DNA of 64,000 bases from positions 30,143 through 94,142 of the IMG/VR virus record IMGVR_UViG_3300025864_000012; one strand, 5' to 3'. The notes beneath the pieces were generated by a model that was not told where the DNA came from, ran no database searches, and saw only the letters and a program-made list of their open reading frames with translations. The position numbers were made by a program, and so were the translations under genes. Source of the stretch: a virus. Position 1 is the stretch's first letter. Every line of letters begins with the position of its first letter. Positions 27,045 to 45,288 of the stretch are shown here, piece by piece.

Positions 27045-27120
27045 TGGCTGGCGCGGCAGGCATCGAACCTGCGACCGCTCCGGTAACAGCGGAGTGCTCT
27101 ACCTGCTGAGCTACGCGCCA
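27045..27120 (-). tRNA. tRNA-Asn (anticodon GTT), CCA encoded
   Basis: Cloverleaf on the minus strand: acceptor TGGCGCG/CGCGCCA, D stem GCTC/GAGC, anticodon stem CTCCG/CGGAG around CTGTTAC, T stem GCAGG/CCTGC around TTCGATG, discriminator G and CCA. All helices are fully paired. Confidence 0.93.
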
Positions 27121-27122
27121 AT

Positions 27123-27212
27123 TGGCGGATGAGGTAGGATTCGAACCCACGGAGCTGTTACGCTCGGCTGTTTTCAAGACAGCTGCCTTCAACCAGACTC
27201 GGCCACTCATCC
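27123..27212 (-). tRNA. tRNA-Ser (anticodon TGA), CCA encoded
   Basis: Acceptor GGATGAG/CTCATCC, anticodon stem GCTGT/ACAGC with loop CTTGAAA, a long variable arm (GAGC/GCTC) typical of serine tRNAs, T stem GTGGG/CCTAC, G discriminator and CCA. Only two bases separate it from the tRNA-Asn gene. Confidence 0.92.
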
Positions 27213-27213
27213 T

Positions 27214-27299
27214 TGGCGGATGGAGCAGGATTCGAACCTGCGACGGTGTGACCCGTTGCGGCTTAGCAAGCCGGTGCCTTACCTCTCGGCCATCCATCC
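27214..27299 (-). tRNA. tRNA-Ser (anticodon GCT), CCA encoded
   Basis: Acceptor GGATGGA/TCCATCC, D arm GCC...GGC, anticodon loop TTGCTAA, long variable arm, T stem GCAGG/CCTGC, G discriminator and CCA. The anticodon stem has one C-C mismatch at its outer pair (27-43). Confidence 0.9.
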
Positions 27300-27303
27300 T
27301 TAG

Positions 27304-27392
27304 TGGTGAGCAGGGTAGGATTCGAACCTACAGGAGACCCAGTCTCAACGAGGTTACAGCCCGCCGCGACGCACCGTCTTCGCCGCCCGCTC
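27304..27392 (-). tRNA. tRNA-Tyr (anticodon GTA), CCA encoded
   Basis: Acceptor GAGCGGG/CCTGCTC, D stem GCGA/TCGC, anticodon loop CTGTAAC, long variable arm (GAGAC/GTCTC) as in bacterial tRNA-Tyr, T stem GTAGG/CCTAC, A discriminator and CCA. Position 8 is C instead of the usual U. Confidence 0.88.
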
Positions 27393-31141: not shown

Positions 31142-31477
31142 TTACCCCGCCACGACCCTAATCGTTCCGAGCGCACGCAGCAGCGGGGTTTCCATGCCGC
31201 CCGCTGTCTTCGTGAGGCGCGTGAGGATGCGGTACTTGCCGATCGCCACCGGGTCAACCAGATCAGCGAGCCTCGCCTTGCCGTAGTTCTGGCCGTCGAC
31301 GGCGGTCAGCGCAGCGGTGACGAAGGACTCCGACTCGTCGACTAACACCGTGCCGAGCGCTACCATCGCGGCCTGTGCCGTCCATTCGGAGGGCACGTAG
31401 GTGAAGCCCGGCGTTTCGCATTCGATTTGCCAGATGACGTACTCGTCGGTGCCCAAGATGTAGGTCGCGTCACTCAT
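31142..31477 (-). CDS. Hypothetical protein at the end of the fibre module
   Basis: A 111-residue beta-rich protein (VIWQIECETPGFTYVPSEW, YRILTRLTKTAGG), probably a small structural or fibre-associated protein. It overlaps the 941-residue fibre gene by 4 bases and is the last gene of the late module, followed by about 180 bases without a convincing gene. Confidence 0.58.
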   Translation of the reverse strand: MSDATYILGTDEYVIWQIECETPGFTYVPSEWTAQAAMVALGTVLVDESESFVTAALTAVDGQNYGKARLADLVDPVAIGKYRILTRLTKTAGGMETPLLRALGTIRVVAG

Positions 31478-34299
31478 GATTCGGTTCTCCTGACTGCGGC
31501 CTGCCAGCCGCTCGGGTTCATGTCTGCTTGCCAGCCGCTCACGCGCAGCCGCGCGTGCCAGCCGCTGGGCATGAGGGTGATGACAAAGGCAAGGTCCTGG
31601 CCGATGAGGGCCATCTTGGTGCCGGTGACGCTAACGGCGGAGATGCCATCGGTTGTGAGCGAACCCTCCCAAACGGCTTGCGTGACGAACGCGACAGCCG
31701 CTACGGCGCTAATCGCCTCGCAGGCGAACGAGCCTTCCCAGACGGCTTCCGTCTTCGATGCTGCGATAGTGACCGCCGAGACGCCTGCGCATGAGAGGGC
31801 GGCCTCCCATGTGGCCTGCGTGGCGGTCCCCACGACGGCAACGGCCGAGCCCCCCGCGCAGGTGAAAGCGCCTTCCCAGGTGGCCTGTGTGGAGGCACCG
31901 ACGACGGCAACGGCGGAGCTTCCCCCGCAGGTGAACGCGCCTTCCCATACCGCTTGCGTCGACGTTGCGACAACCGTGATCGCACTCACGCCCAGGCAGG
32001 TGAACGCCCCCTCATAGGTGACAGGTGCGCCGGTCTTCCTGCCGACAGCGGCAACGGCACTGATACCTCCGCACGAGAAGCTTGCTTCCCAGATGGCCTG
32101 CGTAGCGCCTGCCGCAACGGCGGCGGCGCTGATCGCCCCACACGTGAAGCTTGCTTCCCAGATTGCCTCTGTCTTCGCGCCGACAACGGCGACCGAACTG
32201 ACGGCCCCGCAAGCGAAACTCGCCTCCCACACGGCCTGCGCTGGAGTGGCAGCGACAGCGACAGCGCTGATAGCCGCCACCGTGAATGAGGCTTCCCACG
32301 TGGCCTGTGTGGCGATACCGACAACAACGGTTGTCGATACGCCCTCGACCGCAAACGCGCCATCCCACACAGCGTGTGTGACGGTAGCGGCAGCAGCTAC
32401 GGCGCTGACTGCCTCGCAAGAGAATGAACCGTCCCACGTGTTGACGCCGATCTTGCCGCCGACAATGGCTACTGCCGTAATCCCCAAACAGGTGAAGGCA
32501 CCCTCCCACGTTGCCTGCGTGGGCGTGGGTACAATCGTGACCGCTGAAACAGCTTCGCACGAGAGCGAACCCTCCCAGATGGCATGCGTGAGCCCACCAA
32601 CGACGCTGACGGCAGAGACGCCTTCCGTTGTGAGAGACCCTTCCCAAACGGCCGATGTCACCGCTCCTGTGGCGGCAACGGACGACACGCCCCCACAAGC
32701 GAACGAACCCTCCCACGTTACAACGCCGATCTTGCCGCCAATGACCGCTGCTGCGGTGATGCATTCAACCGCGAACGATCCCTCCCACACGGCCTGCGCG
32801 GGCGTAGCCACGACAGCAACGGCACTCACGCCTGCGCAAGTGAACGCGCCTTCCCAAACGGCCTGGGATGGAGTAGCAGAGACCGCGACGGCGGAAATAG
32901 CCCCTACCGTGAGGGATGCCTCCCAAGCGGCATGCGTGACGATGGCGGTAGCAGCGACGGCGCTGACACCGGCAACCGTGAACACACCTTCCCACACGGC
33001 TTGCAGTGGTGTAGCGACAGCGGCTACTGCACTTATCGCCCCACATGCCAGGGAGCCTTCCCAAACTGCCTGCGTGGGCGTCGGCGCAACCGCGACAGTA
33101 GTCACGCCCTCGCAAGTGAACGAGCCCTCCCTGATGCCTATGTCTGCGGCGTGAGAGAAGAGTAGGGAGAGTGCGCCCTTGAATGCGGATACGGCTGTCT
33201 TAGTTCCGACAACGACGGCGGCACTGCTGGCCTCGCATGAGAAGGAGCCCTCCCAGACGGCATGGAGGGGGCTCGCGGTAGCGGCCACAGCACTGACGCC
33301 GTCGCAGGCGAAGCTACCTTCCCAGATGGCGTGGGCCAGACCAGCCGTGACAGCGGTGGAAGTCGTACCCTCAACGCTGAAGCTCGCTTCCCAGACTGCT
33401 TGGGCAGCAGTTCCTACGGCAGCGACGGCAGAGATTCCCGCGCAGGTGAATGAACCCTCCCACGTCGTAGCTCCCGCCGCCGATGTGAAGTCGACCTCGT
33501 CGCCGTATGTCGTCCCGTCGGAGGTGGTCGCGTATGACCTGACGTGGTAGTCGGTGCCCGCGCTAAGGCCCGTCAGGTCGCTGGGGTAAGTGACGGTAGG
33601 CAGGACCGCCGCCGCGCTGACGCCGTCGCAGGAGAAGGAGCCTTCCCACGTCATAATCTCGGTGATCGCGAGAACGACGTGCGCCAGGTCGTCGTTGCCG
33701 GACGTGCAGCCTCTGGCGCGGGAGCCGGTGGTCGGCGTCGTCTCGTAAGCCGTTCCGAAGGCGTAGGCATAGCTGCCAGAGAGTGTCTGCGCCAGCGTCA
33801 TGCCAGTGCTGGCCGCCGGGGCCGTGCTGGAGCCGGTATAGAGTCCCGCGAGGACGATGGCGGTGGCCGCGCCGGGGTTGATGGTCTGCGCGGCCCCGGC
33901 GGCGTTCTCTTGCTGCAGGACCGGAGTTACCGCGTTCCGCAGGTCGTAGTCGCCGCCGAGCAGGAAGCCGACCGCGTACATCGGGTTCGCGTTGTTCGTG
34001 CGCGTGACGACGACGCTCTGCGCGCCAGAGGGGACCGACGCGCCGAGAAGCCACGCCGTGACGCGGCCCGGCTCGGTCACGGTATCGGCAGCGGAGCCAC
34101 CCGTGATCTTCGTCAGCGTCTGGCCGCCGTAGGTGACGGCCGTAGCCTGCTCCGTCGCCGACACGCTCTGCATCGTGAACACGACAACGCCCTTGGGGGC
34201 GTCGCCCGCGATGCCGAGGGCGAACGTGAACGACGCCTGGCTGACGCTGCCGGTCGTGCCGGTGTGCGACTCAGCCGAGCGAATGAGGCTAACGGTCAT
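31474..34299 (-). CDS. Large repetitive tail fibre / adhesin-like protein
   Basis: 941 residues. Residues 1-210 form a beta-sandwich-like domain (SLIRSAESHTGTTGSVSQASFTF...) related in style to the neighbour at 34303. One repeat then comes, then the second half of an Fn3-like domain (DLTGLSAGTDYHVRSYATTSDG), then 26 more repeats of about 23 residues, consensus AVWEGSFTCxGxSAVAVVxTxTQ. An odd helical insert (SAFKGALSLLFSHAADIG) breaks the array. The C-terminus (SGWHARLRVSGWQADMNPSGWQAAV) has three SGWQA units. It probably forms an elongated fibre. N-terminal attachment to the tail and C-terminal receptor contact are inferred. Confidence 0.75.
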   Translation of the reverse strand: MTVSLIRSAESHTGTTGSVSQASFTFALGIAGDAPKGVVVFTMQSVSATEQATAVTYGGQTLTKITGGSAADTVTEPGRVTAWLLGASVPSGAQSVVVTRTNNANPMYAVGFLLGGDYDLRNAVTPVLQQENAAGAAQTINPGAATAIVLAGLYTGSSTAPAASTGMTLAQTLSGSYAYAFGTAYETTPTTGSRARGCTSGNDDLAHVVLAITEIMTWEGSFSCDGVSAAAVLPTVTYPSDLTGLSAGTDYHVRSYATTSDGTTYGDEVDFTSAAGATTWEGSFTCAGISAVAAVGTAAQAVWEASFSVEGTTSTAVTAGLAHAIWEGSFACDGVSAVAATASPLHAVWEGSFSCEASSAAVVVGTKTAVSAFKGALSLLFSHAADIGIREGSFTCEGVTTVAVAPTPTQAVWEGSLACGAISAVAAVATPLQAVWEGVFTVAGVSAVAATAIVTHAAWEASLTVGAISAVAVSATPSQAVWEGAFTCAGVSAVAVVATPAQAVWEGSFAVECITAAAVIGGKIGVVTWEGSFACGGVSSVAATGAVTSAVWEGSLTTEGVSAVSVVGGLTHAIWEGSLSCEAVSAVTIVPTPTQATWEGAFTCLGITAVAIVGGKIGVNTWDGSFSCEAVSAVAAAATVTHAVWDGAFAVEGVSTTVVVGIATQATWEASFTVAAISAVAVAATPAQAVWEASFACGAVSSVAVVGAKTEAIWEASFTCGAISAAAVAAGATQAIWEASFSCGGISAVAAVGRKTGAPVTYEGAFTCLGVSAITVVATSTQAVWEGAFTCGGSSAVAVVGASTQATWEGAFTCAGGSAVAVVGTATQATWEAALSCAGVSAVTIAASKTEAVWEGSFACEAISAVAAVAFVTQAVWEGSLTTDGISAVSVTGTKMALIGQDLAFVITLMPSGWHARLRVSGWQADMNPSGWQAAVRRTES
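31610..33475 (-). repeat. Tandem array of about 69-bp coding repeats
   Basis: Twenty-six consecutive units of roughly 69 bp, plus an isolated first unit near 33650, each encoding W-E-[GA]-[SA]-[FL]-[TAS]-[CVT]-x-[GA]-[VI]-[ST]-[AS]-V-A. Units differ at many wobble positions and by some residues, so the array is old or kept diverse. The motif is absent from the rest of the genome. Confidence 0.85.
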
Positions 34300-34302
34300 A
34301 GC

Positions 34303-35067
34303 TTAGTCGTTCGTGTGTGAGTCGGCGATGGTCGGCGCGCCGCCGGTGTTCCAGCAGACGCCGCGGTCAATGATGTCCAGGCCGCTGGCGTTCTCGAGGG
34401 TGCCGCCGCTCGAAGCCGTGGTGGTAGTGATGGCGGTGATGGCCGTGGTGGCGAGGGTGGGGCCAGATGACGGCGGCGCGATAGCGACAACGGCGAACGC
34501 CTGCTCCGTCGTAGCCTTCGTCGACGTGATAGCCCCGGTCGCGCCTGTCGCATAGGTGGCATGTGCCGACTGGTAGTACCAATAGGAGTTAGCCGACTGG
34601 TCTCCGATCCACGTCGGGTTACCGTTCGTGGCTGAGAAAGTGACCGGGCCTGACCCGGCCTCGGTGCAGACCAGTAGGAGGTCGCCCGTCACTGCCGGGG
34701 TGAATCCCGCCACGGAGACGTAGTTGCTGGTGGTGGGAACATAGGCCGACGCGACGTACTCGACGGCCCCCGGAGTACTGACCGCGTAGAGCACTCCGGC
34801 GAGATTCAGCGCCGCCGAGTTTCCTACCGTGAAGGCGGAGGCTGCAACGTCGGCTGCGTCGGCTGTCTTCGTGTAGGTCTTGATGCGCTTGGCCGTGGTC
34901 CCCGAAGAGTCAATCAGCGTGAAGCCGCTAGGCGTCCCGCTCGGATCAGACGCCTCGGACATGACGAAGAACACCATCAAATCGCCAACGGCCAGACCGG
35001 ACGGTTTCGCGAGGCTCAGCGGATTGGCGGTCCCGAAGTTGTAGGTGAAGGAACGGTAGGCGCTCAT
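34303..35067 (-). CDS. Fibre-related protein ending in half an Fn3-like domain
   Basis: 254 residues. The first 190 form a jelly-roll-like beta domain (SFTYNFGTANPLSLAKPSGLAVGDLMVFFV) found in phage fibre proteins. The last 45 residues (AITAITTTTASSGG...IIDRGVCWNTGGAPTIADSHTND) are the first half of an Fn3-like repeat that stops abruptly; the second half is found in the next gene (31474). Coupled to the beta-helix protein by ATGA. Confidence 0.68.
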   Translation of the reverse strand: MSAYRSFTYNFGTANPLSLAKPSGLAVGDLMVFFVMSEASDPSGTPSGFTLIDSSGTTAKRIKTYTKTADAADVAASAFTVGNSAALNLAGVLYAVSTPGAVEYVASAYVPTTSNYVSVAGFTPAVTGDLLLVCTEAGSGPVTFSATNGNPTWIGDQSANSYWYYQSAHATYATGATGAITSTKATTEQAFAVVAIAPPSSGPTLATTAITAITTTTASSGGTLENASGLDIIDRGVCWNTGGAPTIADSHTND

Positions 35068-36575
35068 GGACTGTAGGGGGAACCGTTGATGGTGATGCCG
35101 CTGAACGTATGCGGCCCGCTCAAGTTGGAGGGATTGACGAGGACGCTGTTCGCGGTCCCGGTCGGGTCGGTGATCGTGTAGCCATCCACGGTGAAACCCT
35201 CGACCGTGTTAGCGCTCCAGAAGTCGAGCGCCGAGTGCGTGTTCTGGGTGCCCGCGCCAGACTCTACCGTGAAGGTACAGTTCAGCACATCGTAGCTGCC
35301 CAGCGGGTTGCCGCCGAGCAACTCCTCAAGGACGATGCCGAAGCCGTCATGATTGCCCGATGCATTCAGAATGGTGGTCAGGTTCTCAAACTTGCAGTAG
35401 CCGCCGCCGCCGCCCAGTGGCAGGGCGAAGTTGGTGATGTAGCCAGCCGCGTCATAGGGGTTGTAGATGGTGCAGTCCTTTACGAGGCCGTTGGCGGGCT
35501 GGTCGACTTCAATGCCAACGTCCCATGAGTTGTAACCGACGCAGTTGGTGACCTCGCATGCCCCGAGGTGCCCTGCCTGCCCGAGGTGGTAGTTCTCCTG
35601 CACGTCGAAGGTAGTCGGGGCGGCGTTCAGGGTGTCGTGGTAGCAGCCACGGACGTACACACGGTCGATGTTTACGTTAGACCCGGTTGGTGCCCAGATG
35701 GCAAAGCCGGAGACGCCGCCGTAAGCACGACAGTTCTCAATCAGCACATCGCTGATGTGCGCGGTGCCGGAAGCCGCAACGCTGAAGTCGAAGACGTGCG
35801 CCTGCGTGTAGACCGGAACGTTGCTGAGGATGCAGTCCTTGATCGTCAGGTTCTCAATACTGCAACCGGAGTTTGGATCGGAAAGGAAGCACGAGAAATT
35901 AGTGCTGCCGAGATTCTGGGCATCCACCGCGAAGCCCTGCACTGTCGTCATCCGGTAAGTGACGCCGGAGCCTGATGCCCACGTCAGGAAGCGCGGCGTG
36001 GAGTTAGTCAGCTTGATGTTCGCGCCAGAACCTAGGAGGGTGAGCGGGCTCAGGTTGCCGGATGGCAGGGCGATGGGGCTGGCCATGGCATATGTGGCGG
36101 CGGGGAAGTAGACGGTGCCGCCGCCAGTGGCGGTGACGGCATCTACGGCCGCTTGTATGTGGGAGGAGTCATCGGTTGTACCGTCTGCGTGCGCCCCAAA
36201 CTCCATCACGCTCCTGCCCAGCGACCCCTTGCCGCCAACGACAGAAAATCGGTTTAGTGCGCGGCCTATGTCAATCACCGTGCCCACCTCCGTATGTGTG
36301 TAGGCGGAGGCAGCACTGACGGCCGCCTGAATCGCAGGACTGTCGTTGGTCACGCCGTCGCCCTTCGCCCCGTAGTCCTTGACGTTGAAAACCGAAGCGG
36401 GTAACGTCGGGGTAGGGGTAGGCGTTGGTGTTGGCGCAGGAGTGGGCGTTGCCGTAGGCTGCGGGTTCGGATGCGGCTGCTTGGGTTTGCGTCCGGCCAT
36501 AGAGGTAGCGGAAAACACGACCAAGAGAGTCGCAACCACCAGCCATATGATTGTGAAGAGACATCGTTTGTTCAC
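35064..36575 (-). CDS. Beta-helix (pectate-lyase-like) spike with signal peptide
   Basis: 503 residues from GTG 36575. A signal peptide-like start (LFTIIWLVVATLLVVFSATSMA) is followed by a proline-threonine linker (PTPTPTPT). A first entry motif VKDYGAKGDGVTNDSPAIQAAV is followed, after about 45 residues, by a second one (MEFGAHADGTTDDSSHIQAAVDAV), then the right-handed beta-helix. Parallel beta-helix spikes usually bind or degrade surface polysaccharide. It is a clear paralogue of 43372-45288 (CEVTNCVGYNSWDVGIEVDQ versus AEITNCYGNRSGDVGIEMDQ). The signal peptide is unusual for a virion spike and might direct export or membrane anchoring. Confidence 0.75.
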   Translation of the reverse strand: MNKRCLFTIIWLVVATLLVVFSATSMAGRKPKQPHPNPQPTATPTPAPTPTPTPTPTLPASVFNVKDYGAKGDGVTNDSPAIQAAVSAASAYTHTEVGTVIDIGRALNRFSVVGGKGSLGRSVMEFGAHADGTTDDSSHIQAAVDAVTATGGGTVYFPAATYAMASPIALPSGNLSPLTLLGSGANIKLTNSTPRFLTWASGSGVTYRMTTVQGFAVDAQNLGSTNFSCFLSDPNSGCSIENLTIKDCILSNVPVYTQAHVFDFSVAASGTAHISDVLIENCRAYGGVSGFAIWAPTGSNVNIDRVYVRGCYHDTLNAAPTTFDVQENYHLGQAGHLGACEVTNCVGYNSWDVGIEVDQPANGLVKDCTIYNPYDAAGYITNFALPLGGGGGYCKFENLTTILNASGNHDGFGIVLEELLGGNPLGSYDVLNCTFTVESGAGTQNTHSALDFWSANTVEGFTVDGYTITDPTGTANSVLVNPSNLSGPHTFSGITINGSPYSP

Positions 36576-36578
36576 GAG

Positions 36579-36986
36579 TCAATCTGACATCGAGGTGAAG
36601 CGAACGACGGCCCCCGCTGTAGCACTCTGGACGTGCGCCTTGTCGTCGGCAGTCGTGCCGGTGACGGTCACGGGGAACGTGGTAGGAGTCCCCGCCCCGA
36701 CGTAGACGCCTACGGTAGACGAGGTTGCCTCGCCCATGGACACAATGCAGGCCGATGAACAGTAGACCACGAGATACTTGGTCCCCGAGGCCATGGCGCT
36801 CGCCATCGGATAGTCGGTGTTGGCGGCCGTGCAGGTGACCTGTTCCGCGACCGTCTTCGTCTTGAGCAACCGGCAGGCGCTGACGCCCCCCAACTTCATC
36901 ACCTGCCGGTGTATGTTGGTAGTTACCTCTTCGGTCTCGCTGTACTTGCCCGAGTTGCCCTCATCGAGCTGGACGTTTGCAGCCAT
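36579..36986 (-). CDS. Hypothetical structural protein
   Basis: A 135-residue Thr/Ala/Val-rich protein with beta character (YLVVYCSSACIVSMGEATSSTVGVYVGAG). The style matches small phage structural proteins and the 55343 gene product. One-base overlap with the upstream gene. Confidence 0.58.
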   Translation of the reverse strand: MAANVQLDEGNSGKYSETEEVTTNIHRQVMKLGGVSACRLLKTKTVAEQVTCTAANTDYPMASAMASGTKYLVVYCSSACIVSMGEATSSTVGVYVGAGTPTTFPVTVTGTTADDKAHVQSATAGAVVRFTSMSD

Positions 36987-37834
36987 CAGGCCACGCTTAC
37001 GTCAAAGTCACCAGCCGCGATCTTGTAGGTGTCGCCGTTGCCGATGGCGACGCCGGTATGAGTGTTTCCCGCGAAGTAATCGAAGGCTCCCGAGGCGGTC
37101 GAGACCAAGCCAGCGGCCACGATGGTGCCCCAGCTCGACGAGGCCGCCGAGAAGGCGATCTCCGCCGTGTTGTCGACGTTGCCAGCCGCGTCGGCAGTGT
37201 CCCATGCGGCGTTCATCGTAATGGCCTTGCGGGCGTAGTCGCCAGCCGCGCACTCCGTACCACCGACACCCGACTGGTGGTTGGGGGCAGTCGTGAAGGC
37301 TGCCATGTAGGCGGTCGCCGGAGCCGCGTAGGAGCGGTCGGTGCAACAGAAGTGGTCGAGTATTTTGGCCTTCCAGAAGTCGGAGATGCCAGCATCCGCC
37401 GCCTGGTCGAGAGCCAGCTTGAGGGCCGCCGCACTGAATCGGAAGGTATCGCCGTTGCCCACAGTTCTGGAGTTGTCGAGCGCCTTGCCCCACATTATTG
37501 CGTCGCTGGCGTTCTGGAGAGACGCCCCGACAATGGGAGCCGACCAGTCGTTAGCGGTAGCCGTCCACGTGGGCACGTAGATGTTGCTCACCATCTTGCC
37601 GTAGGGCGAGCCGTCTACGGCAGCGTTCCACGAGGCCAGGGCCATCGTGATAGACGCACCGCCAGCGGTGTAGCCGGTGCCAGTGAGCTGCGTGCCGCCG
37701 GTGCCAGCGTCGTAGTCTGGACTGGTAGTCCAGAGCTTGACTTTCCACGGGCCGGTGAGCGTGTAAGCGCCCGCCGAGCCGCGCATCAGGTGGTTGACCA
37801 TGGCCGCAGCCATGAGATTGCTTGGTCCAGCCAT
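36986..37834 (-). CDS. Tail fibre-type protein with duplicated domain
   Basis: 282 residues made of two copies of a phage domain: N-terminal copy has VNHLMRG...WKVKLWTTSPDYDAGTGG and IGNGDT-like end TVGNGDTFRFSA; C-terminal copy has LDHFCC...YMAAFTTAPNHQSGVGGTEC, GDYARKAI, SSSWGTIVAAGLVS and AIGNGDTYKIAAG. The second copy matches the Gp80-like family of tail fibre proteins known from actinophages. Probably a virion component near the tail tip. Confidence 0.7.
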   Translation of the reverse strand: MAGPSNLMAAAMVNHLMRGSAGAYTLTGPWKVKLWTTSPDYDAGTGGTQLTGTGYTAGGASITMALASWNAAVDGSPYGKMVSNIYVPTWTATANDWSAPIVGASLQNASDAIMWGKALDNSRTVGNGDTFRFSAAALKLALDQAADAGISDFWKAKILDHFCCTDRSYAAPATAYMAAFTTAPNHQSGVGGTECAAGDYARKAITMNAAWDTADAAGNVDNTAEIAFSAASSSWGTIVAAGLVSTASGAFDYFAGNTHTGVAIGNGDTYKIAAGDFDVSVA

Positions 37835-37866: not shown

Positions 37867-37941
37867 CTAGAGCAGTTTGGTGGCGACGTAGACCAACACG
37901 ATCGCGAGAATCACAATGACGATAAGACGTTCGATGGACAT
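37867..37941 (-). CDS. 24-residue membrane peptide
   Basis: MSIERLIVIVILAIVLVYVATKLL, a single transmembrane helix with a GGGAG ribosome site five bases before the ATG. It overlaps the last 31 bases of the upstream phosphoesterase-like gene. Such micro-proteins can act as holin modulators; role unproven. Confidence 0.5.
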   Translation of the reverse strand: MSIERLIVIVILAIVLVYVATKLL

Positions 37942-39215
37942 GGTACTCCCTTCTTCTCTTTCGTTTGTGAATCCACGACTGTCTCCGCGGGCCTGCTGAG
38001 GTCGATGTAACTCACTTCGTCGACACCACGCTCGCGGCTGACGAAGTACAAGCACTGCTCAGGGCTGGATGCCGGGTTCTTGAGGTTCGGTGTGAGGTTG
38101 TTCGCGCCGACCACGTCCCCGTTGCAGAACGCCGCTCCATCGCCGTAGGTGAGGCGCGTCGTCTGGTGCCAGTGGTGGAACAGCCAGTAGCGGAACTCGT
38201 TGCCGCGCCCCAGCTCCGACGTGTGCTTGGCCCACATGCGGTAGACGCCGTACCACGGAATCCCCATCGCTCCCATGATTTCGTTCCCGTGCGTCGAGAT
38301 GAACGGCTGCCCGGCGACCTCGAAGCGGATGCGACCGTGCGTGGCGATCTCGCTGTCTTTGATCGGGAGGTTCTGCCCGTAGGCGAGTAGGTAGTGCCAG
38401 AAGAGCCACTCCCAGTTGAACGTCGACTCCTGAGCCCCCGACGACTTGCCGCCGACCTTGCCGTGGTTGCCCAGCACCTTGCGCCGTCGCCACACCTTGA
38501 TTTCCGGCAGAGCCTCGATAATGGCCCGCTCTATGCCAATGAACATCTGAGCGCCAAACACAGTCTGCTCGGCGGCGTTGAGGCAGAGTTGCACGTCCTG
38601 ACCGGCGAAGATTCCCCAGCCCTCTCCCTCGTCCCCCCCGTAGTTGAACCATCCGACAGTGATTCGGTATGAGCGCATGAGGTTGCGGATGGATGCCACC
38701 ACGGCACGCACGTATTCCCTTGCGCACCACTGCTCGGCAATCTCGCGGTTATAGATGTTCCCGCCGGTGTCCTTGGCCTGCACCTTCTGTCCGTACTGCC
38801 AGTCCGACAGGTCGAAGATGACCTCGCGCTCGGGCAGATGCTTGTTCTGACGCTCGGGGGCGCGATAGTCTGGTGCGGGGAATGGCAAGGCCGCAGCGGC
38901 CACCGTCTCCGCCAGCATGTCCTCCAGCCCGGAGGATTTGGCGCGAGCCGCCTTGTAGAGGGCATCAAGCGCCTTGGCCTTCGCCTCGAGCTTCATTTCC
39001 TTCGTCTCGCGCTCTAGGCGTCCATCGGTTGTCTCGGGCGGAGCCACATCCGGCGTGTGCTTGCGCCCCCAGTGCTCCGCCGGGTACTGCAGGTTGTGTT
39101 CAGAACAGAGCCTTTCTACAGCATCGATGTGGTTGTTGCAGATCTTCACGCCTCGGTGTCGTAACTGCTTGCAGAGATCCCTGGCCGATTTGGCAGCGTT
39201 GTACGCCTCGACCAT
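37911..39215 (-). CDS. Metallophosphoesterase-like phage protein with N-terminal helical domain
   Basis: 434 residues. An N-terminal basic helical domain (AAKSARDLCKQLRHRGVKICNNHIDAVERLCSEH) resembles a DNA-binding fold, followed by a calcineurin-like domain: VIFDLSDWQYGQ (D-x-Q instead of D-x-H), YGGDEGEGWG, VLGNHGKVG (GNH-G) and ISTHGNEIMG. The same domain order occurs in phage proteins of unknown role. Altered metal ligands mean activity is uncertain. Its promoter lies at 39378-39406, so it may begin a separate late transcript. Confidence 0.72.
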   Translation of the reverse strand: MVEAYNAAKSARDLCKQLRHRGVKICNNHIDAVERLCSEHNLQYPAEHWGRKHTPDVAPPETTDGRLERETKEMKLEAKAKALDALYKAARAKSSGLEDMLAETVAAAALPFPAPDYRAPERQNKHLPEREVIFDLSDWQYGQKVQAKDTGGNIYNREIAEQWCAREYVRAVVASIRNLMRSYRITVGWFNYGGDEGEGWGIFAGQDVQLCLNAAEQTVFGAQMFIGIERAIIEALPEIKVWRRRKVLGNHGKVGGKSSGAQESTFNWEWLFWHYLLAYGQNLPIKDSEIATHGRIRFEVAGQPFISTHGNEIMGAMGIPWYGVYRMWAKHTSELGRGNEFRYWLFHHWHQTTRLTYGDGAAFCNGDVVGANNLTPNLKNPASSPEQCLYFVSRERGVDEVSYIDLSRPAETVVDSQTKEKKGVPCPSNVLSSL

Positions 39216-39448: not shown

Positions 39449-40177
39449 TCACGCGTAGCGCCTTGCCGCCTCCAGAAGCTCCTTGTAAGGGAACCCGGTG
39501 CCGGGATCGGTGTGCCCTCCGGCGATGTGGAAGACGCGGCTGCACTGCCGGTGCGTGGTGATGCCCCTCTCGTTGGCGTGGAGTTGCTCGTCGGTTAGGG
39601 CGCGGATCGGGATCCCGAGCTTCTTTGACTTCCGCGCAATCACCCAGGCCGTCCGGTCGAGCGTGCCAGCAGCCAACCTCTTCCACTCAGCCTCGGTCCA
39701 GTTTGCCTTGCCCATCTGCTCGATGTGCTCGCCGGACGTGTTCACGTAGGGTGCTCCCCACGGAACCTCATCGTCGTCGAGGTAGCTTTGGATCGAGTTG
39801 TTGTCGACACCGAGGTTCGTGCTCCCGCCGGACTGCTGCATCTCGAAGTAGCGGCCCACGTCCTCGGCGGCGGTGAGGAAGGCAGCCACCTCCATGTCGT
39901 GCAGGACGATCTGGTGAACCACCGAGAGCTGGCGAGTCCCACTGTGATGTATGGCATCGTAGTCGTGCCGAATGGCGTACTTGGGCGCGGGGTTGAACAT
40001 CGCCCAGAGGGCGTTCTTCTCGGTAGTGCCGTGCCCGGTCTTGTGCTTAGAGACGCGGTAGGCGAGGGTCTTGGCGTTGCCGCCCCAGGTCGCATTCCTC
40101 CAGGTGACCGGCGGGATGTCGAGCTTTTCCCTGACAGCGTAGACGCGCATGTCGGCTTTCAGAACGATGATATTCAT
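39449..40177 (-). CDS. Endolysin: N-acetylmuramoyl-L-alanine amidase (Amidase_2 type)
   Basis: 242 residues from ATG 40177 with AGGAGG just upstream. The region VVHQIVLHDMEVAA, then WGAPYVNTSGEHIEQMGKANWTEAEW and finally HIAGGHTDPGTGFPYKELLE match the zinc amidase fold, with His in VLHD and H-x-D in GGHTDPG as probable ligands. It cuts the amide bond between MurNAc and the stem peptide. No separate wall-binding domain is obvious; the N-terminal 60 residues may serve this. It is preceded by a papain-like protease and a holin-like gene, forming a lysis group. Confidence 0.78.
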   Translation of the reverse strand: MNIIVLKADMRVYAVREKLDIPPVTWRNATWGGNAKTLAYRVSKHKTGHGTTEKNALWAMFNPAPKYAIRHDYDAIHHSGTRQLSVVHQIVLHDMEVAAFLTAAEDVGRYFEMQQSGGSTNLGVDNNSIQSYLDDDEVPWGAPYVNTSGEHIEQMGKANWTEAEWKRLAAGTLDRTAWVIARKSKKLGIPIRALTDEQLHANERGITTHRQCSRVFHIAGGHTDPGTGFPYKELLEAARRYA

Positions 40178-40185
40178 AGTGCCTC

Positions 40186-40962
40186 CTACAGACTTGAGAT
40201 GAGCTTTTCCAGGGCTGTCACGGCCGTTCTGAGCGTCGCGAGGATGGCCCGCAGTGCAGCCTTGAGCCCGGTCGGGGCGGGCGTCGGTGTGGGGGTCGGT
40301 GTCGGAGTGGGCACCGGAACAGGCGCAGCCTGCACCACCGCCCACGCCTCGAAGTCGCCGTTCTGGATACGGGCGAAGCTGGCGTCGGTCATGTAGAAGT
40401 GGCCCTTGTCTCCATACTCAACAGTCCACGAGTTGACCCAATCAATGCCGCCCACATCGCCGTTGCCATAGACGCAGTGGCCTCCGCGGACGGTGCCGTC
40501 GATGAGAACGAAACCCCCAGAATCCGGGTTGTCCATGCTGGAGTACCAGTCCATCCCCGCGACGATGGGACCGTGATGCTCGATCCAGTCCTTGATCTGT
40601 GCTGAGCTCGTAAGTCGCGAATACGCCGTGATGTAACCGGCCTTCTGCGCCGCCTTCAGCCCCTCGCGGACTTCAGCGCCGCCGTTGGGCAGGTCGCCGT
40701 GACCGGCAATCTTCAGGAAGAACGGTACGATGTCGGCGTTGGTGAAACCGGGATCGGTGTGCGTCTCGTCGTCGCAGTCGAGCGCACCCAGCGTGCCAGC
40801 CGCGACGCAGGTGCCGTTGTCGCCTTGGTCTAGGATGCGCGGCACCGACCACTTGAGCGGTACGGCCACGCCTTCGGTGATGAGTTGCTCGAGGCGGAAC
40901 ATCGGCCAATCGCGCTTGTCTTTGACGAACGGCTTGCGGCCAAGGCTATGGGCGTTGGACAT
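40186..40962 (-). CDS. Papain-like (C1 family) cysteine protease
   Basis: 258 residues with AGGAGG before the ATG. Gln and Cys of the active site are in RILDQGDNGTCVAAGTLGAL, His in GGHCVYGNG and Asn in DWVNSWTVEYGDKGHFYM, so the full C1 set is present. The C-terminus has a PTPTPTPT linker and an amphipathic helix (LRAILATLRTAVTALEKLISSL). Papain-like proteases are uncommon in phage lysis or tail modules; the enzyme may cut peptide cross-links or surface proteins during entry or lysis. No propeptide is seen. Confidence 0.78.
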   Translation of the reverse strand: MSNAHSLGRKPFVKDKRDWPMFRLEQLITEGVAVPLKWSVPRILDQGDNGTCVAAGTLGALDCDDETHTDPGFTNADIVPFFLKIAGHGDLPNGGAEVREGLKAAQKAGYITAYSRLTSSAQIKDWIEHHGPIVAGMDWYSSMDNPDSGGFVLIDGTVRGGHCVYGNGDVGGIDWVNSWTVEYGDKGHFYMTDASFARIQNGDFEAWAVVQAAPVPVPTPTPTPTPTPAPTGLKAALRAILATLRTAVTALEKLISSL

Positions 40963-40970
40963 GGTACCTC

Positions 40971-41495
40971 CTACTTGCCGAGCTGAATGATGATCGAGGC
41001 GACGGCGACGATAGTCATGACGATCGAGATGACCCACGGCTGTATCTTGTCTGTGGCCTTCTCCTTCTCCGACCCCGCCGCCGTGTGCGTGGCCAAGCTC
41101 TGCTCTGTCGAAGCCTCACGTTCCTTGAGGTCGCTGAGAGACCGAAGGAGGCCCTCGATGACCGTATCGAACTTCTCGCCCAACTGCCGCAACTGGTCGT
41201 TCGTGGCGTTTTCTGACTTATCGATCCGCTTCTCGAACGACGTTGTGTTCGCTCCGACGGCCTCCTTGGCCGCAGAGAGAGCCGCCGCGAGGCTGTCCAA
41301 CGAATCCTGTTTCTGCTCGACTCGACTGTTCTCGACGAGGTGCATCTCGCGCTTTATGGCGGTGATCTTCTCATCCACCAGTTCCTTGAGGTGCCCGATC
41401 TCACGTGCCAGCGCCACGTTGGTAAGTGCGGTCGGATCTGGCACAGGCTTGCTGTCGCCCAGCGGGCCAACTGTCATACGTCCGTCGTCAGACAT
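40971..41495 (-). CDS. Holin-like coiled-coil protein with C-terminal membrane helix
   Basis: 174 residues. A long coiled coil (KELVDEKITAIKREMHLVENSRVEQKQDSL onward, residues 30-140) is followed by a single C-terminal transmembrane helix (WVISIVMTIVAVASIIIQLG). This layout is seen in phage lysis accessory and XhlA-like proteins. It sits next to the papain-like protease and amidase, so a lysis role is plausible. Confidence 0.66.
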   Translation of the reverse strand: MSDDGRMTVGPLGDSKPVPDPTALTNVALAREIGHLKELVDEKITAIKREMHLVENSRVEQKQDSLDSLAAALSAAKEAVGANTTSFEKRIDKSENATNDQLRQLGEKFDTVIEGLLRSLSDLKEREASTEQSLATHTAAGSEKEKATDKIQPWVISIVMTIVAVASIIIQLGK

Positions 41496-41506: not shown

Positions 41507-43375
41507 TCATAGCCAATTCCTCCACGGGTCCGGGTTGCTTGGGTTTAGGTTCGGATCCACGAACGGTGCCGGGGCGACGCCCGACAGCGGCGTCCCGCCG
41601 GTGATCGCCCACGGGTAGCCGACCGTCGCCGTGCCCGTCAGGGTCGTCCAGTTCCAACTCACTTCGGTCACGTACAGGTCATTGGCGCCGTCGAGGCTGG
41701 GCACGCTCAGCCGGTCGCCCGGCAGCACCTGCCAACCGCCACGCTCGCGGCCGTTCGTGTCTGTCATGGTGGAGGGAACGGGCAGGCTGCCGCTCCACTC
41801 GCTGGCGACGATGCGCGCATGCACGCGCTGCGCGACGCTGGCGGCATGGGCATCGGTGAACATCTGGCCGGCAAACTCGGTGATGACCCCCACGGACGCG
41901 CTGTAGTCGGTCGGCGGCGTGGCCGGGTACCAGACGTCACGCGGCGTCCCATTGGGGATCAAGGCATTGCCGTCCGACAGGTAGGTCATGCGAATCCAGT
42001 CGGGGCACGCCTCGGGGTCGTGGTCGAGGCCCGCCACCGACTCGCCGGCTGCGTCGCCGTAGCTCCAGCAGGAGTTGCGCGCCGGGTCTGCCGCCAGCGG
42101 CTTCTTGTAGTAGTTGAAGCGGTCGTCGCCATCCTCGTCGAGGTCGAACCAGTACTCGAGTTCGCCAGAGTACAGACCCGCGAGGTCGGTCATGCCGCTG
42201 CGAATGCCGGTCATCGATCGCACGACCAGCTGATTGTTGCCGTCGCCGAGAGAGATGACCTCGCCAGCGGTCACGGTGGCGAGGCCCGGCTTCGTCGCCA
42301 TTTCGCAGAGTACGTCGGAGAGGTACACCGTGCGGTCGACGGTCACGCCGTCCACGCGGCAGCGCACAATGACGGACCCCACCCAGACCCAGGGGTCGCT
42401 GACCACCTCGTTGATAGGGCCAGCCACAGCGTTGTGCCAGAGACGCATGCTGATGGTGGTATAGGTGTAGGGTCCGGGCGGAATGTTGCCGGGCGGAATG
42501 TCGAAAAACGCATTGTGCCAGGACGTTTGGGTGGTCGTCTCTCCGGGTGAGTTCAGATGGAAAGCAAGACTCTCCCATGGTGACTCCAGAGCGAAGAACT
42601 CCAAGACCCACGGGCCGGGCGCGCCGTTTGCCGTCAGCACGGGCAGATTGCACATGTACGTGACATCGAGCCCGACGATCTTGCATCCCGTATTGAGGCC
42701 GCCGAGCAGCCAGTAATTGAGGTTGAAGCTCGATCCTGATGCAAAGGCCTCGTTGTTGTTGGCGAGGATGAAGAGGCGGCCCTCCGTGTCGGACGTGTAC
42801 TTGGCCGCTTCTGCGTCCGACGCGATAAGCTCGGCAGAACCCTCTTCGTACACCTGCGCAGTAGTACTCCACTGTGCCGTGTCGGAGTCGTTCCACACCC
42901 AAGCGAAGGCCCCGTACCGGTCACTCCACGCCCAGAGACCCGAGCACTCGACGGTAATCGCGTCTTTGACCGGAGAGAGCACGCCGCCGAAGGGGTCGCT
43001 GCAGATGCGCCCGCCGAAGTCGGGAGCGCCGTTCGCCGTGAGCTTCACGCGCGCCTTGTGCTGGAGCTGGTTACGAGCCTTCGCCGCCACGTCGGGTGGC
43101 ACCGTGAACGAGAGGCTGCCGTCACCGCCGGGCATCCCCTTGGTGCGCTCGCCGATGACGGCGCTGCCCGCGAGGTCTGCCCAGCCGAGGGCGTCGGAGC
43201 CGACCAGGAGGGAAAGGGTGGGCACGTTATCAGTCATGGTGCGTCCCTCCGTTGTGAAGTCCCGCTCGGCCCCGTAAACGGTCCCTACGTCGGTGGTCGT
43301 GTAGGCGCGGACGTGATAGACGGTGTCAGAGCGCAGGTCGGTCAGGGTCGACGTGAACCTTCTCAAGTCGGTCAT
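41507..43375 (-). CDS. Minor tail protein (tail tip), with half Fn3-like domain at the N-terminus
   Basis: 622 residues from the ATG in an ATGA overlap. Residues 1-40 are the second half of an Fn3-like domain (RFTSTLTDLRSDTVYHVRAYTTTDVGTVYGAERDFTT). The body begins LSLLVGSDALGWADLAG and has features of siphovirus tail-tip proteins of the Gp37 type (LSFTVPPDVAAKAR, DFGGRICSDPFGG, VEGVTVDRTVYLSD, and a late PGDRLSVPSLDG). It probably sits at the distal end of the tail next to Dit. Confidence 0.7.
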   Translation of the reverse strand: MTDLRRFTSTLTDLRSDTVYHVRAYTTTDVGTVYGAERDFTTEGRTMTDNVPTLSLLVGSDALGWADLAGSAVIGERTKGMPGGDGSLSFTVPPDVAAKARNQLQHKARVKLTANGAPDFGGRICSDPFGGVLSPVKDAITVECSGLWAWSDRYGAFAWVWNDSDTAQWSTTAQVYEEGSAELIASDAEAAKYTSDTEGRLFILANNNEAFASGSSFNLNYWLLGGLNTGCKIVGLDVTYMCNLPVLTANGAPGPWVLEFFALESPWESLAFHLNSPGETTTQTSWHNAFFDIPPGNIPPGPYTYTTISMRLWHNAVAGPINEVVSDPWVWVGSVIVRCRVDGVTVDRTVYLSDVLCEMATKPGLATVTAGEVISLGDGNNQLVVRSMTGIRSGMTDLAGLYSGELEYWFDLDEDGDDRFNYYKKPLAADPARNSCWSYGDAAGESVAGLDHDPEACPDWIRMTYLSDGNALIPNGTPRDVWYPATPPTDYSASVGVITEFAGQMFTDAHAASVAQRVHARIVASEWSGSLPVPSTMTDTNGRERGGWQVLPGDRLSVPSLDGANDLYVTEVSWNWTTLTGTATVGYPWAITGGTPLSGVAPAPFVDPNLNPSNPDPWRNWL

Positions 43376-45288
43376 GATGGCGTATACGTCCCCGTGATGC
43401 AGTAGGCAAAGGTACGTTGGTTCATAACTCCCCAAGTTGCACTTGGTCCATCGGCGTAGACATCGTCGTTCCAGTTGCCTTCACCTGAGCCTGTGGGGCC
43501 ACGATATGCGTGGAGCGTCTCTAGCCCGGGGGTAGCGACGTCACAGATGAAACCCAACCAGTAGAACCCTTGGGCGAGATGCACTGGCTCCGCGAAGGGC
43601 AAGTCGAACCACGCCCCCACTGCTTGCCCACCTGGGATGGCAACCTCGATACCTGTGGCCAGCAGATCAACGGGCTCGGCCCAGTGGTCGGAGTAGATCA
43701 CAGCCTTGACATTGCTCCCGAGCACGTTAGTACTGAGGAAGGCGCTGAGCTTGGTAACGTCCCCCCCATAGTGCTCACGGACCGGGAACCTGCCGCACAT
43801 CTTCCCGTCCGTCCACGTGCCATAGAGGATTCGTTCTTCACCAAAGTAGCCAAATGGCCCATCCCACGGCGAGAGAAAAGGAACGCCATTGATGGTTACG
43901 TTGGTCATGTTCACGATGGAGTCCTGCGTTTCATTTAGAACTATGATCACGCCTACAGACTCGTAGGTATGGTCAATGATCTCATAGTTGAGGATATTGA
44001 TGGTGCCAGCGGTTACGGTAGAAGGGATGTTGACTGCATGACGGTATAATCCCTCGACGTTTTCAATAGTGTATTTCATGTCCTCAAAGTTGACAGTTGT
44101 AAGTTGTGGCCCACCCTGATCGCCTACGACCTCAAACATCGACTGACCACCATTGCTGATCTGAGCGATATTCGATATACTTGAGCTTCTGCGAAAAGTC
44201 ATATAGGGGTTTGCCGGGCGCAGAGGTGCAACGAAATTCGTATAGAAGTAGGCGTTCCAATTCGGGTTGTTCATGATACAATTGTCGACGAGACCTTCAG
44301 AACACTGGTCCATCTCAATGCCCACGTCACCGGAGCGGTTGCCGTAGCAGTTGGTGATCTCGGCTCTACCGACACGCGCGTACTGGCCAATTTGGTAGTT
44401 GGAGCTCGACCCCACGTTGGTCATGGTGACCATAGTGTCGTGCCAGCATTCACGGATGTAGACACGGTCCATGGTTATCGACGAGTTGGCATTACCACTA
44501 CCCCAAATCCTTATGCCGGCAGTTCCGCCCTCACAACGGCAGTTCTGCACGAGTACGTCCTCGATGTGGTTCCACACGCTATCGACTTCAAGGCGACCGG
44601 CCTCGTGCCCGACGTAGACATTGATAGGACTCTGATTCCATGCCCGCTCCGGGTCTGTGAGCATGTTGATCACGCGGACATCCCTGATTGTAAGATTCTC
44701 GATGTTGATGTAGTGCGTCCATTTGTGTAGGCCCGCAGCATACATATCGAACCCGAAGACGGACTCCAGACCACTTTCCGAGTGATTGTTTTGGGCATCG
44801 ACGGTGAAACCCTTGAAGAAAAAGTTCTTGAAGGTGAGTGGGTTCGTATAAATGTCCCAGGCCATGGGCTTGTTCCAACTGAAGAAGCGCGGTCGCGTGT
44901 TCGAGAGCTTTATAATCGTGTTGTAGCCAGAGAAGGTCATCGTACGAACGTTTTCTGCCGGCAACTTTATGGATTCGTCGATCAAGTAGGTGCCCGACTC
45001 TGGAAAATACACGGTTCCGCCCCCTGCGGCAAAACATGCGTCGACGGCACCTTGAACCGCCGCCGAGGACTCGATGACGCCGATAGGGTCAGCGCCATAG
45101 TCGACAACGTTGAAAACGTATGTATCAACAGTGTGGCTGTCGGCAATCGTCGGTGACGACGAGGTTGACCAGCAAACGCCGCACGCGATGATTTCCCTGT
45201 CAGGAGCGTCGGGGGCTATGAGACCTCCGCTGCGCGCCGAGTGTGCCTGGATTTTGGTGATGGCCGTGGTCGTGACAGAGGATGTCAT
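43372..45288 (-). CDS. Beta-helix tail spike with N-terminal half Fn3-like domain
   Basis: 638 residues. Residues 1-57 (TTTAITKIQAHSARSGG...IIACGVCWSTSSSPTIADSHTVD) are the first half of an Fn3-like domain. The beta-helix starts with VFNVVDYGADPIGVIESSAAVQGAV and GGGTVYFPESGTYLI and continues to about 480. The C-terminus (VKAVIYSDHWAEPVDLLATG...CITGTYTPS) is a jelly-roll-like, sugar-binding style domain. Probably the host-surface polysaccharide binding or degrading spike. Paralogue of 35064-36575. Confidence 0.75.
   Translation of the reverse strand: MTSSVTTTAITKIQAHSARSGGLIAPDAPDREIIACGVCWSTSSSPTIADSHTVDTYVFNVVDYGADPIGVIESSAAVQGAVDACFAAGGGTVYFPESGTYLIDESIKLPAENVRTMTFSGYNTIIKLSNTRPRFFSWNKPMAWDIYTNPLTFKNFFFKGFTVDAQNNHSESGLESVFGFDMYAAGLHKWTHYINIENLTIRDVRVINMLTDPERAWNQSPINVYVGHEAGRLEVDSVWNHIEDVLVQNCRCEGGTAGIRIWGSGNANSSITMDRVYIRECWHDTMVTMTNVGSSSNYQIGQYARVGRAEITNCYGNRSGDVGIEMDQCSEGLVDNCIMNNPNWNAYFYTNFVAPLRPANPYMTFRRSSSISNIAQISNGGQSMFEVVGDQGGPQLTTVNFEDMKYTIENVEGLYRHAVNIPSTVTAGTINILNYEIIDHTYESVGVIIVLNETQDSIVNMTNVTINGVPFLSPWDGPFGYFGEERILYGTWTDGKMCGRFPVREHYGGDVTKLSAFLSTNVLGSNVKAVIYSDHWAEPVDLLATGIEVAIPGGQAVGAWFDLPFAEPVHLAQGFYWLGFICDVATPGLETLHAYRGPTGSGEGNWNDDVYADGPSATWGVMNQRTFAYCITGTYTPS

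What the first reader, a model, noticed from the sequence alone, without database searches (positions are those of the whole stretch)
31474..34299. A fibre built from 27 copies of a 23-residue WEGSF...SAVAV repeat
The unit (W-E-G-S-F-T-C-x-G-V-S-A-V-A-V...) is unlike collagen, Fn3, Ig-like or pectate-lyase repeats I can name. Alternation of small hydrophobic residues predicts short beta strands, perhaps a beta-solenoid or cross-beta fibre, with a near-invariant Trp-Glu in each rung and a frequent Cys. Extensive wobble differences show the array is old, yet the protein sequence is retained. Copy number could be tuned by recombination to set fibre length.
Basis: partly seen in the sequence, partly recalled or inferred. 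Interest (0 to 1): 0.68.

Follow-up and report, generated by a model that had tools for sequence, protein, structure and literature searches.

The report
Phage tail protein of 23-residue repeats
An uncultivated tailed phage carries a tail-region gene whose protein is about two-thirds a string of 27 similar 23-residue beta units, probably a stiff rod that holds out a host-binding part; the unit's sequence is new, but other phages also carry short-repeat proteins of this general kind.

Summary
ORF 31474..34299(-) (941 aa) is coding and carries 27 units (one at residue 218, 26 at 280-899) of a mostly 23-residue repeat. Identity at lag 23 is 42% against 12±1.4% in shuffles. It is not all repeat: residues 1-217 are a separate N-terminal region, about 245-279 are the C-terminal half of an Fn3 domain, and the end is a Trp mini-repeat. 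The array is old: synonymous sites are saturated, neighbouring units are no more alike than distant ones, and the longest exact DNA repeat is 19 nt. Copy-number tuning by recombination is therefore unsupported.

No Pfam, PHROG, NCBIfam, PDB or phage-record match was found, and scans of IMG/VR and GTDB found no relative. AlphaFold2 (pLDDT 65, low) gives a beta-solenoid-like model. All changes in unit length fall in one loop, as such a fold predicts. Other uncultivated phages have arrays of 20-24-residue beta units (L007-L020) with a similar layout; sequence homology to them is not shown.

Best reading: a solenoid shaft of a tail fibre or adhesin, a new variant of a known kind. A side finding may be more novel: two copies of one Fn3 domain are each split at the same loop between consecutive tail genes, once into this protein.

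The parts
31474..34299 (-). gene of the repeat protein, 941 aa
   Evidence: codon statistics
33649..34299 (-). N-terminal region, residues 1-217, probably a beta-sandwich (jelly-roll-like) head; about 25% identical in a pairwise alignment to the product of the upstream gene
   Evidence: pairwise alignment only; no family match; fold is inference
33589..33648 (-). first repeat unit (residues 218-237), cut short and followed by the Fn3 half
33463..33588 (-). C-terminal half of an Fn3-like domain plus linkers (residues 238-279); the matched half is 33481-33582
31603..33462 (-). continuous array of 26 units (residues 280-899)
31474..31602 (-). C-terminal tail with a Trp mini-repeat (MPSGWHARL / RVSGWQADM / NPSGWQAAV)
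   Evidence: read directly
34303..35067 (-). upstream gene (254 aa): N-terminal region plus the N-terminal half of the same Fn3 (34303-34455); ends TAA-GCT-ATG, in frame with the repeat gene
31142..31477 (-). downstream gene (111 aa, no family match) that overlaps the end of the repeat gene, so translation is probably coupled
35064..36575 (-). pectate-lyase-like tailspike gene upstream in the same run of genes
36986..37834 (-). fibre protein of the Gp80 family (PF23140) in the same run of genes

Best explanation
The gene encodes a late structural protein of a siphophage. It consists of an N-terminal beta domain, then half of an Fn3 domain, then a rod of 26 stacked 23-residue coils, then a short Trp-rich tail. 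Each coil is probably one rung of a beta-solenoid: strand 1 is about AVWEGSFTC, an arc is x-G-V-S, strand 2 is about AVAVV, and a variable second arc is T-x-T-Q-A. W1, F5 and C7 would form ladders along the rod. The rod would be about 12-13 nm long (26 x 0.48 nm) and act as a rigid spacer or adhesin shaft in the tail-fibre apparatus. Shown: the repeat, its coding strand, purifying selection between units, the location of length changes, and the gene order. Inferred: the solenoid fold, incorporation into the virion, and the spacer or adhesin role.
For: Coding and constrained. It lies downstream of the tape measure gene (PF10145), tail genes and the lysis genes, next to a tailspike and a Gp80-type fibre gene, in one run of minus-strand genes with touching or overlapping ends. 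Two AlphaFold2 runs on different blocks give all-beta models with 2-3 strands per unit (pLDDT 59.7, pTM 0.53; pLDDT 64.8, pTM 0.61). Most top Foldseek neighbours, all weak, are beta-solenoids: LpxA/LpxD/GlmU, tapirin, curli CsgA, ice-binding proteins, TpsA secretion domains. Every change in unit length (three of +1 or +2 residues and one of 18) lies after position 17 of the unit, never in positions 1-17, and the Fn3 half also interrupts unit 1 there. This is what a solenoid with one free loop predicts. Other phages encode proteins of a similar layout with other units of 20-24 residues.
Against: Both models are of low confidence, built from 3-5 internal rows with no outside homologues, and no Foldseek match reaches E 0.001. 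A trimeric fibre could not be modelled. There is no proteomic or microscopic evidence for a virion location.
Confidence: 0.6

Rival explanations
1. The repeats form a trimeric intertwined beta fibre (as in classical tail fibres) rather than a single-chain solenoid; the 23-residue unit is one turn of a three-chain shaft.
For: Many phage fibres are trimers (general knowledge); the gene has spike and fibre neighbours.
Against: Single-chain models already give solenoid-like stacks in two blocks, though monomer prediction cannot exclude a trimer.
Confidence: 0.2
2. The array is a passive, flexible or weakly structured Ala/Val/Ser/Gly-rich spacer, retained for length and not for fold.
For: Composition is simple (A, V, T, G and S are about 70% of residues); model confidence is low.
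Against: W1, E2, F5/L and S11 are nearly invariant while synonymous sites are saturated, and indels fall in one loop only; a loose spacer would not need this.
Confidence: 0.12
3. It is a secreted or host-surface adhesin or a curli-like self-assembling protein rather than a fixed virion part.
For: Curlin repeats are also 23 +/- 5 residues, strand-arc-strand (PMC10192328), and CsgA is the top, though weak, fold neighbour; the neighbouring spike 35064-36575 begins with a signal-peptide-like segment (read directly).
Against: No curlin family match; the Asn/Gln ladder of curlin repeats is absent; no signal peptide is evident at the start of this protein (read directly, not computed); the gene sits in the structural run.
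Confidence: 0.08

Closest known systems
Short-repeat proteins of uncultivated phages (L007-L020), e.g. L013 unit GVSATGAVGTVVVTGSARVLPT
   Same: Long arrays of 20-24-residue beta/Gly-rich units. In L007 the array follows an intact Fn3 of the same kind. Most of L009 and L011-L020 end in a Trp mini-repeat.
   Different: No W-E-G-S-F or Cys. Our unit HMM finds none of them. Profile comparison favours kinship for L007 (0 of 300 column permutations) but not for the larger set (5 of 300 reach the score, and the reversed control scores higher), so homology is not shown.
Curlin repeats (CsgA, functional amyloid; PMC10192328)
   Same: A 23-residue strand-arc-strand unit with an X-G-X-X first arc; weak fold neighbour.
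   Different: No Asn/Gln ladder, no Pfam curlin match, phage tail-gene context.
Left-handed beta-helix and other beta-solenoids (LpxA/LpxD/GlmU, ice-binding proteins, tapirin, TpsA)
   Same: Predicted fold class.
   Different: No sequence similarity found; different coil lengths and motifs; no fold match is significant.

Membership tests
Pfam / PHROG / NCBIfam repeat or fibre families | profile match above cut-off | tested here: not met
   no match to the array beyond noise at E up to 1-10
Beta-solenoid fold | one coil per repeat, strands stacked in register along an axis | tested here: inconclusive
   AF2 models agree with it but pLDDT is 60-65; Foldseek neighbours are mostly of this class but weak
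Beta-solenoid fold | length variation confined to inter-strand loops | tested here: met
   all four changes in unit length lie after position 17 of the unit; that this is a loop rests on the low-confidence models
Curlin / CsgA | N-x-psi-x-psi-x-Q motifs | tested here: not met
   unit columns show no conserved Asn and a single Gln position; no Pfam curlin match
GVxGTGAVGTV short-repeat phage proteins (L007-L020) | detectable sequence homology of the unit | tested here: inconclusive
   for; against
GVxGTGAVGTV short-repeat phage proteins (L007-L020) | array of 20-24-residue units ending in a Trp mini-repeat | tested here: met
   by reading of the sequences
Virion tail fibre | presence in the virion and a role in adsorption | not testable with these tools
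   gene position only

The most novel reading that the evidence does not exclude
The repeat protein is docked on the virion by a naturally split Fn3 domain. The product of the upstream gene ends with the first strands (about A to C') and the repeat protein supplies the last ones (about E to G), and the halves complement each other between two chains. The same trick, split at the same loop, would join the spike of gene 43372-45288 to the tail protein of gene 41507-43435. Spikes and shafts could then be swapped by inserting a cassette with its own stop and start into the Fn3 loop.
Probability: 0.12. Interest if true: 0.7.

Novelty: new variant of a known kind. Interest (0 to 1): 0.42.

Why it matters
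If right, the protein gives a naturally long, regular beta rod with a new Trp-Glu/Cys ladder, a possible scaffold and a case of how phages build fibre shafts from short units. It also points to a class of short-repeat phage proteins that the public family libraries barely cover. The split Fn3 arrangement next to it would, if functional, explain how spike and shaft modules are exchanged without breaking their attachment.

Tried and rejected
Copy-number tuning by recombination: rejected for lack of DNA repeats and of any neighbour effect. Translation of the plus strand: rejected by codon statistics. Homology with the GVxGTGAVGTV repeats: suggestive with L007, not upheld with the larger set, where the reversed control scored higher. 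Kinship of the N-terminal region with a visually similar stretch in L010: not supported. Relatives of the unit or of the whole protein: none in IMG/VR, GTDB species genomes or phage records (one search gave only the Fn3 half; nothing). The collection scans start from short peptide patterns and then tblastn, so distant or low-complexity relatives can be missed; the A5 profile does find this record's own array. Overlapping sliding windows made a useless alignment (A2). Relatives of the phage by TerL gave only two contigs of 6-7 kb, without the array. Searches for papers on phage short-repeat shafts and split Fn3 found nothing direct.

Full report
What is there. The ORF at 31474..34299 on the minus strand encodes 941 residues. 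A unit HMM finds 27 units in it and nothing comparable in any other frame of the window. The units start at residues 218, 280, 303, 326, 349, 390 and so on to 877. Twenty-two of them are 23 residues; the others differ (24, 24, 25 and 41 residues, and the first unit is interrupted). In residues 390-899, identity at lag 23 is 42%, against 11.9 +/- 1.4% in 2000 shuffles. The frame is coding by codon usage and by GC at the third position, like its neighbours. Units differ by a dN/dS of about 0.32.

Anatomy. Residues 1-217 are a non-repeated N-terminal region that matches no family and is 25% identical in a pairwise alignment to the product of the upstream gene; I take it for a beta-sandwich head (inference). 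Unit 1 (218) runs into the C-terminal half of an Fn3-like domain (residues 240-279 with linkers). Then come 26 units in a row (280-899), and a tail with a Trp mini-repeat, MPSGWHARL/RVSGWQADM/NPSGWQAAV. The consensus unit is W-E-G-S-F-T-C-x-G-V-S-A-V-A-V-V-G/A-T-x-T-Q-A-V. Trp-1 is kept in 24 of 26 units, Glu-2 in 24 (Asp in 2), and Cys-7 in 18. All departures from 23 residues lie after position 17. Positions 1-17 carry no insertion or deletion in any unit.

Age and copy number. At identical residues, codons agree in 45.8% of pairs, against 43.3% expected if codons were redrawn from the phage's usage. Neighbouring units are no more alike than distant ones (p = 0.49). The longest exact DNA repeat is 19 nt. 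The array is old and shows no sign of recent expansion or homogenisation, so recombination-driven length tuning has no support here.

Fold. AlphaFold2 was run on two blocks with internal rows as the alignment: six units (pLDDT 59.7, pTM 0.53) and twelve units (pLDDT 64.8, pTM 0.61). Both give all-beta models with two to three strands per unit. Foldseek has no significant match, but its weak neighbours in the PDB are mostly beta-solenoids, among them LpxA/LpxD/GlmU, tapirin, ice-binding proteins, TpsA domains and curli CsgA. Among predicted viral proteins several of the better-supported neighbours are uncharacterised or 'glycine-rich' phage proteins. Curlin repeats have the same average length of 23 residues and a strand-arc-strand plan (PMC10192328), but their Asn/Gln ladder is absent here. 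A beta-solenoid is the best guess. A trimeric fibre is not excluded.

Context. The window belongs to a 94,142-base virus record with portal, prohead protease, capsid and large terminase genes and a tape measure gene. The repeat gene lies beyond the lysis genes, after a Gp80-type fibre gene and a pectate-lyase-like spike. It is followed without a gap by a 111-aa gene. A tail-fibre or adhesin role is inferred from this position.

Relatives. No relative of the unit or of the protein was found in phage records beyond the Fn3 half, in IMG/VR or in GTDB species genomes. The joined Fn3 halves do find an intact Fn3 in L007, inside a 777-aa protein where it is followed by an array of about 20-residue units. 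Searching with those units gives 13 viral loci (including the L007 contig itself) with arrays of 20-24-residue GVxGTGAVGTV units, most ending in a Trp mini-repeat. The layout is similar. Sequence homology with our unit is undecided: the L007 profile beats all 300 column permutations, the larger family does not stand out, and its reversed control scores higher. I therefore call this a new variant of a known kind and not a member of that family.

Split Fn3. The Fn3 half in this protein is the missing half of one that ends the upstream gene. The junction is ...TIADSHTND-TAA-GCT-ATG, in the same frame. A second copy of the same domain is split at the same residue (...TIADSHTVD) between gene 43372-45288, which begins with the N-half and continues as a pectate-lyase spike, and gene 41507-43375, which begins with the C-half directly after an ATGA stop/start overlap. 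The two joined copies are 54% identical. No intact copy was found in the record's window and the first 40 kb searched with it, which together cover the record. Joined, the halves match intact Fn3 domains of other phages across the break. Both halves of both copies keep their motif residues; dN/dS between copies is about 0.45 for the N-halves and 0.63 for the C-halves, on short and divergent stretches, so this is weak evidence of constraint. Either cassettes were inserted into a permissive loop and left scars, or the halves still pair between two chains and hold the tail proteins together. I could not test the second.

Noticed in passing
34303-34455 with 33481-33582; 45124-45288 with 43250-43351 (all minus strand): Two copies of one Fn3-like domain, each split at the same residue between consecutive tail genes; no intact copy was found in the record.
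   Followed up: partly
35064-36575 (-): Tailspike-like gene whose product begins with a signal-peptide-like segment and a proline/threonine-rich linker, unusual for a virion protein.
   Followed up: no
39449-41037 (-): A papain-like peptidase gene (40186-41037) overlaps an endolysin ORF (39449-40345) by about 160 bases; the peptidase has a PT-repeat linker.
   Followed up: no
37911-39215 (-): Gene matching an exonuclease family (phrog_284) sits between lysis genes and fibre genes.
   Followed up: no
27045-27392 (-): Cluster of tRNA genes (Asn, Ser, Ser, Tyr); the plus-strand ORFs over it look like antisense artefacts, and ARAGORN's tmRNA call over it is doubtful.
   Followed up: no
L009, L011-L020: Family of proteins, most starting with a GWG...W motif, with GVxGTGAVGTV repeats and a Trp mini-repeat tail in uncultivated phages; almost unmatched in PHROGs.
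   Followed up: partly
L010:1310-5854: ORF of 1515 codons mixing short-repeat arrays with what look like LamG-like and jelly-roll-like domains.
   Followed up: no
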